This document shows positions 1 through 47,416 of a stretch of 64,000 nt of DNA, piece by piece. The translations under genes were made by a program, and so were the position numbers. The first letter of the stretch is position 1. Every line of letters begins with the position of its first letter. This DNA is from Meiothermus cerbereus DSM 11376 (GTDB taxonomy: Bacteria; Deinococcota; Deinococci; Deinococcales; Thermaceae): contig NZ_JHVI01000011.1 in assembly GCF_000620065.1 (NCBI RefSeq), positions 1 to 64,000 of the forward strand. Reading direction: 5' to 3'. The notes below the pieces were generated by a model. It was not told the origin of the DNA, did no database searches, and was given only the letters and a program-made list of their open reading frames with translations.

Positions 1-22
1 CATCGGCGTATAGGTGTTGGTT

Positions 23-1240
23 AACTCAAAACTTGCACCTCTTGCATAGCCTGCATAAACCTGCTTTTCCTCTCACTTCATCCGGCGGTGGGTGCCAGAG
101 GCCTAGGGCATGAAGTTCCCCCAGTGCCGCCTGAGCTACAAGTCCGGGCAAGAGAAGGCGCAGGGACTCCCTGGCCGCCTCCCGCCAGGTCAGCCCCTCT
201 CCCTCCTGCTCCATCCGCACCCAGTGCGCCAGCAGGTAGGCGAGAAAGCAAAGCACCAGGAAACGATGCACCCCTAAGGGGGTTCTCTGGCCGAATTGCC
301 CCAAAGAAAACTCGCTTTTCATGGCCTTGAAGAAATGCTCGATGCTGAACCTCCGCCTGCCCCACAGGAGCACCGTCCTTCCGCTGGCGGGAAAGGTGGC
401 CACCACATACCGCCATTCCCATTTCCCCTTGGGCAGAGGGTAGCGGTACCAACTGACCCAGACCGGAAAGGCCAGACCCCGTAGGTAAACCTTGCTCCCC
501 TGCCGTCTGAGGTTCAGGAGGCGCTGACCCTCCCGCGTCCTCCGATCCCGCCGCATCCCCACCACCGCCTCCAGGCCCATCCCCTGCACCCCCGTGAGGA
601 AGCAGAGGGTGCCGAAGGCGGCGTCGGCCACCACCCGAATACGAAAGGCCTTCCGCATCCAGGGGGGCAGGGCCGCGAGAAGCCGCAGGGCCAGGAGGGA
701 AAGGCTCTTCTCGCCTTTACCTCGCCAGAGGCGATAGACCCAGGGCACCCGAAGGTCACCGTAGACCAGGTAAAGCACCACCAGATGCAGGCCCCACTTG
801 CCGTGGAAAAAGGAGAGCGGCAGGAGGGGAAAGGTGCCTTGCTTCTCCAGGGTGACCAGGTCCAGGACCACCAAGAGCCTGGGCTTGGGGCCTCGTCTTC
901 TCCTAGCCAGGTGCAGGGTTTTTTCAGCTTCCTGCCTAGCCAGGCGGATGAGGGCGCGGGTGGGCCAGGGGTAGCTATTCAGGAAGCGGGAGAGGGCGGA
1001 GGGGGACTTGGTCTGGCTGTGCTGGGGCCTGGCCTTGCCATGGCCTTGGAGGAGCAGGAAGAGCAGGGCTTTGAGGGAATCCCGCAGGTGGGGGCTTGGC
1101 AGGAGGGCCAGGATGGCTGAGAGTAGGGACTGGGCTGCTGTGTGCATAGCACCCGTCATCAGACGGGAAACCAGCAGCCCCTTTCAAGTGGTCCCGGTGC
1201 ATAAGGAATCCCCAGGGCGCATAACTGCAAGTTTTGAGTT
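23..1240 (-). mobile_element. IS4-family-like insertion sequence
   Basis: A 1218-bp unit bounded by a perfect 15-bp terminal inverted repeat: AACTCAAAACTTGCA at 23-37 and its reverse complement at 1226-1240. The repeat match stops exactly at these points. It contains one transposase gene that nearly fills it, and the gene's stop codon lies inside the left repeat. The right end sits inside a membrane protein gene, which is cut off there. Comparing the 22 bases left of the element with the bases right of it shows no clear target-site duplication, so the left flank may have been rearranged or the duplication may be degenerate. Assignment to IS4 rests on the transposase signature, not on a database hit. 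Confidence 0.85.
26..1159 (-). CDS. IS4-type DDE transposase
   Basis: This 377-residue protein cuts and joins the ends of the surrounding insertion sequence. A DDE triad can be placed at D100 (VVLDLVTLE), D179 (RVVADAAFG) and E274 (FSIEHFFKAMK). The last acidic residue sits in an R-x3-E-x6-K arrangement (R270, E274, K281), which is the signature of IS4-type enzymes. The protein is full length with no frameshift, so the element may still be active. The start may be the ATG at 1159 or the next Met five residues on. The reading frame ends within the left terminal repeat, as is common for compact elements. The C-terminus is cysteine-rich over its last ten residues. Identification as a transposase is firm; the exact IS group is inferred. 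Confidence 0.85.
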   Translation of the reverse strand: MTGAMHTAAQSLLSAILALLPSPHLRDSLKALLFLLLQGHGKARPQHSQTKSPSALSRFLNSYPWPTRALIRLARQEAEKTLHLARRRRGPKPRLLVVLDLVTLEKQGTFPLLPLSFFHGKWGLHLVVLYLVYGDLRVPWVYRLWRGKGEKSLSLLALRLLAALPPWMRKAFRIRVVADAAFGTLCFLTGVQGMGLEAVVGMRRDRRTREGQRLLNLRRQGSKVYLRGLAFPVWVSWYRYPLPKGKWEWRYVVATFPASGRTVLLWGRRRFSIEHFFKAMKSEFSLGQFGQRTPLGVHRFLVLCFLAYLLAHWVRMEQEGEGLTWREAARESLRLLLPGLVAQAALGELHALGLWHPPPDEVRGKAGLCRLCKRCKF

Positions 1241-3720: not shown

Positions 3721-4215
3721 ATGCGCACAAAACTATTCCTCGCCTTGCTGGTCGTATTGCTTTCCAGCTGTTTTCCTTCGCGCTCCAGCCTTACGGTGGG
3801 GCTGCGCTTTGGTTTTGAGCTGAGCCCTATCATCACCCGCTTTGAACCTGACCGAGGGCGGGGCGCTAGTTACCGGGTGGGGGAGAGCGTTAGCTTTATC
3901 ATCAGCCTGACTCGAGCCGGCTATGTGGCCCTGGTGGGCCTAGACCCAGACGGGACAGCCTACGAGTTCGACCGGGTTTTTCTGAACCCCGGTACCCACG
4001 TGCTCTCGGGGCCGCCGGGGTTCCGCTATGAGTTGCGCCCGCCCCTGGGCATGCAGCGCGTGCGGGCCATCTATACCGATACCCCGTACCCTTCTGGCTT
4101 TGTTATCCGGGGTACTTATGGCCTTGAACGTTGGGATCAGCAGATCTCCATCTACCTTGAGCGCTCGGGCTCGAGGGTCCGTGATGTGGCCGAGACCTAC
4201 CTTTACATTCATTAG
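3721..4215 (+). CDS. DUF4384 lipoprotein
   Basis: A predicted outer-surface or periplasmic lipoprotein. The start at 3721 is chosen because GGAG at 3711-3714 lies six bases upstream and the N-terminus is then a proper type II signal peptide: MRTKLFLALLVVLLSSC, with the lipobox cysteine at residue 17. An earlier in-frame TTG at 3709 overlaps the GGAG box and is unlikely. The remainder (YRVGESVSFIISLTRAGYVALVGLDPDGTAYEF) matches the beta-rich DUF4384 fold, which is often found in bacterial lipoproteins of unknown role. A TAGAAT box at 3700-3705 is a plausible -10 element. The gene is followed at once by the 125-bp repeat. Confidence 0.75.
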   Translation: MRTKLFLALLVVLLSSCFPSRSSLTVGLRFGFELSPIITRFEPDRGRGASYRVGESVSFIISLTRAGYVALVGLDPDGTAYEFDRVFLNPGTHVLSGPPGFRYELRPPLGMQRVRAIYTDTPYPSGFVIRGTYGLERWDQQISIYLERSGSRVRDVAETYLYIH

Positions 4216-4224
4216 CAGATTTTA

Positions 4225-4349
4225 TACCAGATTCGGTTAGTTCGTCACCGAACGGTGACGAACTAACCCGACCGAAGGGAGTGCTCTAGGATTCAAAAAG
4301 ATAGCCTCTTAGCGCTTTTTGTTTGAAGATTATCTTTTTGAATCCGGTA
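4225..4349 (+). repeat. 125-bp mobile-looking repeat, copy A
   Basis: This 125-bp unit is identical base for base to the copies at 17738-17862 (inverted) and 47283-47407 (same orientation). Each copy is flanked on both sides by TTA, here at 4222-4224 and 4350-4352. Its ends form an imperfect 10-bp terminal inverted repeat, TACC(A/G)GATTC. Inside are two hairpins: a 16-bp stem (GGTTAGTTCGTCACCG, 2-nt loop, then its complement) and a second hairpin with 15-bp arms (GGATTCAAAAAGATA and its complement). It encodes no credible protein. The structure fits a miniature inverted-repeat transposable element; no autonomous partner is visible in the window. Confidence 0.9.
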
Positions 4350-4507
4350 TTAGCCCTCTGTGTGGGCCGGGGAGCTACAGGCCACCCCGCCTTCCCTCCC
4401 AAAATCTCGATAGCCGGGGCACTCACACGGGTCTGGTCTTACTGCAATGCTTTGGCTAGGCCGGGTATGGTATCGCCGGTTACTACGGAACAGTCGTTAA
4501 ATTGCGC
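4350..4507. other. Intergenic region upstream of qor
   Basis: Between the repeat and the qor promoter box there are about 160 bases. They hold no credible open frame and no strong -35 element; I see nothing else in them. Confidence 0.5.
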
Positions 4508-17590: not shown

Positions 17591-17737
17591 AGGCTTCATC
17601 CTGATGCGTTCTCCGATAGGCGATGCTTGTGTGTCGTGGCCCGGTTGGGGTATTCCCGGATCGCTTGAAAAAGGGCGGCAGGCTTCGCTTTGCGTGGATT
17701 GGGTTGAAGACAACCCTGCCCGATTATAACCCCCTTA

Positions 17738-17862
17738 TACCGGATTCAAAAAGATAATCTTCAAACAAAAAGCGCTAAGAGGCTATCTTTTTGAATCCTA
17801 GAGCACTCCCTTCGGTCGGGTTAGTTCGTCACCGAACGGTGACGAACTAACCGAATCTGGTA
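17738..17862 (-). repeat. 125-bp mobile-looking repeat, copy B (inverted)
   Basis: Exact reverse complement of copies A and C over 125 bases, flanked by TTA at 17735-17737 and 17863-17865. It lies between the start of the ParB-like gene and the sdrP terminator, so it may have separated the ParB-like gene from its original upstream control region. Structure is described under copy A. Confidence 0.9.
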
Positions 17863-17882
17863 TTAGAGCCCCACAGCCAAAC

Positions 17883-23829: not shown

Positions 23830-24065
23830 CTGAGACTCCTCCCCAAAACAAGACCCTACGGGCCAGCTAGCGGGATGCTTGGGCCTATGTGTTTTCTGAC
23901 AGCGTCATGTTACAACGGATTACAAACATACTCAACTAGGGTATAGGTTGCGCCAGGGTAGATTGGCAAAACCAGCGGAGTAGGTCTATGCGTGCCTGGC
24001 GCAATTCCCCCAGCGATCTTTCGGAACAGCAACTTGTACTTCAACCTATGGAGACACTTGCAACA
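23830..24065. other. Gap between the sulfite-dehydrogenase operon and mutL
   Basis: 236 bases between divergently placed ends. It should hold the operon promoter on the minus strand, but I cannot pick a convincing -35/-10 pair. No gene seen. Confidence 0.4.
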
Positions 24066-45994: not shown

Positions 45995-46030
45995 GTGCTG
46001 TACATTTCTCCCATCAGGCCGTATTATTCA

Positions 46031-46117
46031 GGCGTCATCGGGGGTGCCCGGAAGCGCCGGGCTGAGAAACACCCTTTGAACCTGATGCGGTTTGCACCGC
46101 CGTAGGGAGCATGACGC
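46031..46117 (+). ncRNA. TPP (thi-box) riboswitch
   Basis: A complete thiamine pyrophosphate aptamer. The closing stem is GCGTCAT at 46032-46038 with ATGACGC at 46111-46117. The conserved core CTGAGAAACACCC and ACCTGATGCGGTTTGCACCG with GTAGGGAGCATGA are present. It lies 33 bases upstream of a thiamine-binding-protein gene. TPP binding should lower expression of the transport operon. Confidence 0.97.
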
Positions 46118-46149
46118 GATACCCTCCCGATGACATGGAGGGATTTTTT
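46104..46149 (+). promoter_or_regulatory. Riboswitch expression platform with embedded thiB ribosome binding site
   Basis: GGAGGG (46137-46142), seven bases before the thiB ATG, is its ribosome binding site. It can pair with CCCTCC (46122-46127) in a hairpin followed directly by six T (46144-46149): a terminator stem that also hides the binding site. GGGAG in the aptamer (46105-46109) can alternatively pair with CTCCC (46124-46128), which would prevent that hairpin when TPP is absent. The switching model is inferred from base pairing. Confidence 0.6.
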
Positions 46150-47235: not shown

Positions 47236-47282
47236 GCTACCGGGCCGTGGGCGGGGCTGGCCCTGGCCTTCCGGTAAACTTA

Positions 47283-47407
47283 TACCAGATTCGGTTAGTT
47301 CGTCACCGAACGGTGACGAACTAACCCGACCGAAGGGAGTGCTCTAGGATTCAAAAAGATAGCCTCTTAGCGCTTTTTGTTTGAAGATTATCTTTTTGAA
47401 TCCGGTA
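47283..47407 (+). repeat. 125-bp mobile-looking repeat, copy C, inside the thiamine operon
   Basis: Identical to copies A and B over 125 bases, flanked by TTA at 47280-47282 and 47408-47410. It sits between thiB and thiP, nine bases before the thiP ATG. Its two hairpins will be transcribed with the operon, so it could lower thiP expression or stabilise the thiB mRNA. Confidence 0.9.
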
Positions 47408-47416
47408 TTAGCAGGT

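What the first reader, a model, noticed from the sequence alone, without database searches (positions are those of the whole stretch)
4225..4349. Three identical 125-bp elements flanked by TTA: a probable active MITE family
Copies at 4225-4349, 17738-17862 (inverted) and 47283-47407 are identical over all 125 bases, and every copy has TTA immediately on both sides in direct orientation. Ends form a 10-bp imperfect inverted repeat TACC(A/G)GATTC; inside are a 16-bp-stem hairpin and a second hairpin with 15-bp arms. Perfect identity means recent spread or strong selection. The 3-bp TTA duplication resembles the TNA target of some IS5-group elements, but no parent transposase is in the window.
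Basis: partly seen in the sequence, partly recalled or inferred. Interest (0 to 1): 0.75.

Follow-up and report, generated by a model that had tools for sequence, protein, structure and literature searches.

The report
Mobile hairpin repeat of Meiothermus bacteria
The three repeats are copies of a small transposon without genes of its own, present in about 85 copies in this Meiothermus-like genome and in most of its relatives except Thermus; it inserts at a three-base TNA target, mostly at gene ends, and its mover enzyme was not found.

Summary
The 125-bp elements are real, but copy 2 is not identical: it differs at 2 bases (hairpin loop AA to TT). They belong to a MITE-like family with about 85 copies in this Thermaceae genome (170 TNATACCRGATTC ends). 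Size classes are 125 and 156 bp here, up to 310 bp in relatives through added modules. Of 70 own copies compared, 65 carry identical 3-bp TNA duplications (TTA, TAA, TGA, TCA). Three element-free paralogous sites in the same genome hold a single TNA, which shows a true target-site duplication. The family occurs in Meiothermus, Calidithermus and Allomeiothermus, not in Thermus or the other Deinococci searched. Surviving insertions lie at gene 3' ends: 14 of 67 duplicate a gene's own stop codon, and only 2 lie between divergent genes. Both hairpins are kept by compensatory changes (14 of 34 pairs). Arm sequence follows the genome, not the size class, so copies exchange sequence; near-identity therefore does not prove a very recent burst. 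No autonomous parent with these ends was found; the mover is inferred to be a DDE (IS5/IS1031-like) transposase. Current activity is not shown. Verdict: an apparently undescribed member of a known kind (mosaic MITE, ERIC/BOX-like).

The parts
4225..4349 (+). MITE copy 1, 125 bp, 9 bp after the stop of the ORF ending at 4215
4222..4224 (.). target-site duplication TTA, left of copy 1
4350..4352 (.). target-site duplication TTA, right of copy 1
4235..4268 (+). hairpin 1 of copy 1 (15-bp stem, loop GAAC)
4289..4345 (+). hairpin 2 of copy 1 (15-bp stem, variable loop)
17738..17862 (-). MITE copy 2, 125 bp, inverted; loop of hairpin 1 is GTTC (2 differences from copies 1 and 3)
17735..17737 (.). 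target-site duplication TTA (TAA in element orientation), left of copy 2
17863..17865 (.). target-site duplication TTA, right of copy 2
17819..17852 (-). hairpin 1 of copy 2
17742..17798 (-). hairpin 2 of copy 2
47283..47407 (+). MITE copy 3, 125 bp, between a thiB-like gene (end 47235) and a ThiP-like permease gene, downstream of a TPP riboswitch
47280..47282 (.). target-site duplication TTA, left of copy 3
47408..47410 (.). target-site duplication TTA, right of copy 3
47293..47326 (+). hairpin 1 of copy 3
47347..47403 (+). hairpin 2 of copy 3

Best explanation
The element is a miniature, non-autonomous DNA transposon (MITE). SHOWN: 10-bp imperfect terminal inverted repeats TACC(A/G)GATTC; insertion at TNA with duplication of those three bases; a palindromic preference around the target, roughly T-S-TNA-S-A; dispersal at about 85 sites; a two-hairpin body conserved across three Thermaceae genera; extra modules in longer members. 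INFERRED: a transposase supplied in trans, most likely of the DDE class and IS5/IS1031-like because of the 3-bp TNA duplication, binds the ends and moves the element. Its own full-length element was not found in the genomes examined, so it may be rare, diverged at its ends, or lost. Survivors collect at gene 3' ends. One simple reason is that TNA includes the stop codons TAA and TGA, so an insertion into a stop codon duplicates it and leaves the protein unchanged. Once in place, copies exchange sequence by recombination or gene conversion, which keeps all size classes of a genome alike.
For: About 85 copies by TIR count, 0 in control; 40 full-length copies of at least 95% identity were scored. 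65 of 70 copies have identical TNA on both sides. Clean empty sites: TGA site of L028 versus L278; TGA site of L029/L297 versus L304; TCA site of L258 versus L278/L290, each with one triplet. Family in 19 relatives of three genera, absent from Thermus and from other families searched. 14 stop-codon insertions, and 2 divergent against about 30% expected of non-coding TNA sites, p=7e-8. 14 of 34 pairs with changes on both sides, 98.1% of cells paired, 0 of 500 shuffles. Same haplotypes on both sides of the 31-bp size difference; arm identity 0.91 within a genome across size classes versus 0.83 between genomes within a size class.
Against: No autonomous element with these ends was found in the genomes searched, so the mobiliser is unidentified. 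No strain pair showing a fresh insertion: the one within-species comparison found the same copy in both M. taiwanensis strains. IS5-type ISs with TNA duplications in the genus have different ends, GARACTGTYGTAAAAG.
Confidence: 0.93

Rival explanations
1. The near-identity of copies reflects concerted evolution (gene conversion among old insertions) and not a recent or ongoing transposition burst; the family may be transpositionally dead in this genome. (This rival concerns the age and activity of the MITEs, not their nature, so it is compatible with the best explanation.)
For: 125- and 156-bp copies share the same SNP haplotypes on both sides of the size difference. Within each genome the arms agree across size classes. 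A few copies have mismatched TNA flanks (5 of 70), as expected if copies recombined or decayed.
Against: 18 copies are identical to the letter, and several elements sit in other repeats of the same genome beside still-empty paralogues, which also fits recent transposition.
Confidence: 0.35
2. A functional RNA element (3'-UTR stabiliser, processing site or attenuator) that is kept by selection for its two hairpins, with mobility only a means of dispersal.
For: Strong covariation in both stems; position at gene 3' ends and, for copy 3, inside a thiamine-transporter gene cluster.
Against: Tandem insertions occur in both orientations (22 same, 14 opposite). Quasi-palindrome correction or a need of the transposition process could also keep stems paired. 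No Rfam family matches. Avoidance of promoters and genes explains the positions without any function.
Confidence: 0.12
3. A REPIN/REP-type element moved by a Y1 (HUH) transposase.
For: High copy number, intergenic hairpins, 3'-end location.
Against: A 3-bp target duplication with matched N (65 of 70) and empty sites with one triplet are not expected of Y1 transposition, which makes no duplication (established knowledge); the element has terminal inverted repeats.
Confidence: 0.02

Closest known systems
ERIC / RU-1 (enterobacteria, 127 bp)
   Same: Size, palindromic hairpin structure, intergenic dispersal, unknown mobiliser; tips TATACCC...GGGTATA resemble TACC...GGTA (PMC2759123).
   Different: ERIC duplicates TA; this family duplicates TNA with N free. 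No sequence similarity beyond the TACC tip noticed (by eye only); different phylum.
BOX elements of Streptococcus pneumoniae
   Same: Fixed end modules with a variable number of internal modules, hairpins, enrichment between convergent genes (PMC3049150).
   Different: Different sequences; here the short 125-bp form without internal modules is a main class, and the target is TNA.
Small noncoding repeats (SNRs) of Deinococcus radiodurans
   Same: Same phylum, hundreds of mosaic repeats (295 copies, at least 9 types; PMC1978522).
   Different: No member of this family was found outside Thermaceae in a class-wide search of 111 genomes; SNR target duplications were not compared here.
IS5-family insertion sequences with TNA target (IS1031 type)
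   Same: 3-bp TNA target duplication; IS5-type ISs with TNA duplication exist in the same genus.
   Different: Ends of those ISs are GARACTGTYGTAAAAG, not TACCRGATTC.

Membership tests
MITE | short, multi-copy element without a transposase gene | tested here: met
   125/156 bp, about 85 copies
MITE | terminal inverted repeats | tested here: met
   TACC(A/G)GATTC at both ends
MITE | target-site duplication | tested here: met
   65/70 identical TNA; single TNA at three empty paralogous sites
MITE | derivation from, or cross-mobilisation by, a known autonomous element with like ends | tested here: inconclusive
   no element with these ends and a transposase found in the genomes examined
IS5/IS1031-derived element | ends like a TNA-targeting IS of the family | tested here: not met
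   the TNA-targeting ISs seen have GARACTGTYGTAAAAG ends
IS5/IS1031-derived element | 3-bp TNA target duplication | tested here: met
REPIN/RAYT | no target duplication, Y1 transposase | tested here: not met
   3-bp duplication present; presence of a Y1 transposase was not searched for
BOX-like modular repeat | fixed ends with variable number of internal modules | tested here: met
   lengths 125, 156, 195, 234, 272, 310 by internal modules, one module in 1-3 tandem copies
BOX-like modular repeat | sequence homology to boxA/boxB/boxC | not tested
   the likeness is in architecture only
ERIC | TA duplication and ERIC core sequence | tested here: not met
   TNA duplication; only the TACC tip is shared with the ERIC sequence printed in PMC2759123

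The most novel reading that the evidence does not exclude
A mosaic MITE family of Thermaceae whose stop-codon-compatible TNA target lets it colonise gene ends without harm, and whose covarying two-hairpin body acts as a shared 3'-end RNA element for dozens of genes while the copies evolve in concert.
Probability: 0.12. Interest if true: 0.65.

Novelty: new member of a known kind. Interest (0 to 1): 0.42.

Why it matters
It is, as far as the held literature shows, an undescribed and abundant mobile repeat of Meiothermus and its sister genera. Its TNA target coincides with the stop codons TAA and TGA, giving a simple account of how a transposon can fill a compact genome with little damage. Covarying stems and concerted evolution across size classes make it a good natural test of how bacterial mosaic repeats (ERIC, BOX, SNR) are moved and kept uniform. 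Several contigs of the draft end close to copies, so it may also break short-read assemblies.

Tried and rejected
Parent transposase: PF01609 loci of eight genomes (only the best 30 loci were read), PF13359 in eleven genomes, none found, non-MITE continuations of the TIR, long TIR pairs in 1.8 Mb of loci. L077 looked like a parent (transposase between two TIRs 1.17 kb apart) but is an IS5-type IS (GAGGCTGTCGTAAAAG ends, TGA duplication) inserted into a compound copy. L308 and its orthologues carry the TIR motif, probably by chance, at the start of hslV. L154 is two partial copies around ordinary genes. Orthologous empty sites for the three window copies were not resolvable: intergenic flanks of relatives are too diverged, so paralogous empty sites were used. 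No match in phages or viral contigs.

Full report
WHAT WAS CHECKED. The three copies are at the stated coordinates. Copies 1 and 3 are identical over 125 bases; copy 2, read on the minus strand, differs at bases 27-28 (AA to TT), which inverts the loop of the first hairpin. TTA stands on both sides of all three. The window is part of a Thermaceae genome: a gene next to copy 2 matches the Thermus-type CRP/FNR and LdrP models, the nearest DNA matches are Meiothermus, Calidithermus and Allomeiothermus records, and the genome has 3.03 Mb in 54 contigs.

FAMILY SIZE AND DUPLICATION. The pattern TNATACCRGATTC occurs 85 + 85 times in the own genome and never for the reversed control, so there are about 85 copies. 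Stretches around most copies were taken. Two size classes dominate, 125 and 156 bp (43 and 26 copies). Of 70 copies compared, 65 have the same TNA on both sides (TTA 25, TAA 22, TGA 10, TCA 8), and the surrounding bases show a palindromic preference, T-S-TNA-S-A. Three insertions lie inside other dispersed repeats of the same genome whose element-free copies were found; each empty site has one TNA. This is a true 3-bp target-site duplication.

DISTRIBUTION. The family is in 19 relatives of three genera and absent from Thermus and other families; named records are Meiothermus hypogaeus, M. taiwanensis, M. granaticius, Calidithermus chliarophilus, C. roseus and Allomeiothermus silvanus. Copy number varies widely: G016 (one contig) has 5 exact ends in all, G002 has 144 and 130 on the two strands. 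No match in viral contigs or phages.

ARCHITECTURE. In relatives lengths of 125, 156, 195, 234, 272 and 310 bp recur. The extra length is made of internal modules between fixed ends; one of about 38 bp (TTATCCGCGTAGCGGAGGGCGATACCGCCCCTTGGAAG) is present one to three times in tandem, and another also seems to occur on its own (short matches to query 155-197). On a 30-sequence alignment both stems are kept: 98.1% of cells paired, 14 of 34 pairs with changes on both sides, no shuffle of 500 reaching any of the five measures, and sliding the partners destroys the signal. Selection on structure is one reading; templated correction of quasi-palindromes is another, and sequence alone does not decide.

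CONCERTED EVOLUTION. In the own genome the same linked variants occur in both size classes on both sides of the 31-bp difference. Across five genomes, right-arm identity is 0.91-0.92 within a genome whether or not the size class is the same, and 0.81-0.83 between genomes. Copies in a genome therefore exchange sequence, and near-identity cannot by itself date the insertions.

WHERE THEY SIT. With a simple codon-based gene caller of my own (checked only by eye), 2 of 67 copies lie inside predicted genes against 79% of TNA sites. In 14 of 67 the duplicated TNA is the native stop codon of a predicted gene, 17 more lie between convergent genes, and only 2 between divergent genes, against 30% of non-coding TNA sites (p=7e-8). 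The background sites come from the same stretches, more than 600 bp from the insertion. Purifying selection against hits in genes and promoters explains this; TNA including TAA and TGA makes stop codons safe targets. Copy 3 lies between a thiB-like and a ThiP-like gene behind a TPP riboswitch.

THE MISSING PARENT. No transposase gene flanked by these ends was found. The search was not exhaustive: listings were capped and only some transposase families were tried. IS5-type ISs in the same genus do make TNA duplications, but with other ends. The assignment of the mover to a DDE transposase of IS5/IS1031 type rests on the duplication only and is an inference from established knowledge of that family.

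CONCLUSION. A MITE family, not found in the held literature, of a known kind: mosaic short interspersed repeats such as ERIC (PMC2759123), BOX (PMC3049150) and the D. radiodurans SNRs (PMC1978522). Activity today is not shown; the only within-species comparison available found the same copy in both M. taiwanensis strains.

Noticed in passing
window 23947-24034; also L028, L253, L258, L278, L290: A second dispersed intergenic repeat of about 80 bp with inverted ends TTGCGCCAGG/CCTGGCGCAA; MITE copies have inserted into two of its copies at neighbouring TNA sites.
   Followed up: partly
L001, L011, L248, L287, L298, L304: A third dispersed repeat (GGGGCCCCCGCCTGAAGCGCGGGTAG...) that is also a MITE target in the same genome.
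   Followed up: no
window 1-1240: An insertion sequence with ends ACTCAAAACTTGCA and a DDE transposase (PF01609), at the contig start; a PF01609 match at the same coordinates opens contig C23.
   Followed up: partly
L077:1130-2040 (G002): An IS5-type IS with a split (frameshifted) transposase, inserted into a compound MITE copy with a TGA duplication.
   Followed up: yes
window 17738-17862 and other 125- and 156-bp copies of the genome: The hairpin-1 loop occurs in two inverted states (GAAC and GTTC) among otherwise equal copies, as if the palindrome centre flips.
   Followed up: partly
G004:C129:20002-20044, G020:C4:21667-21709, G023:C1:2065385-2065471: The internal module GGGCCATCGGCCCCCGGCTAGCGCCGG seems to occur alone or in tandem apart from the 125-bp body, as a possible independent nested repeat.
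   Followed up: no
L336:28906-30091 (M. taiwanensis WR-220 plasmid): A 1.2-kb insertion with a short (about 8 bp) duplication right beside a MITE, absent from strain DSM 14542 (L101).
   Followed up: no
window 46030-46126: TPP riboswitch upstream of the thiB-like gene; MITE copy 3 sits between the next two genes.
   Followed up: no
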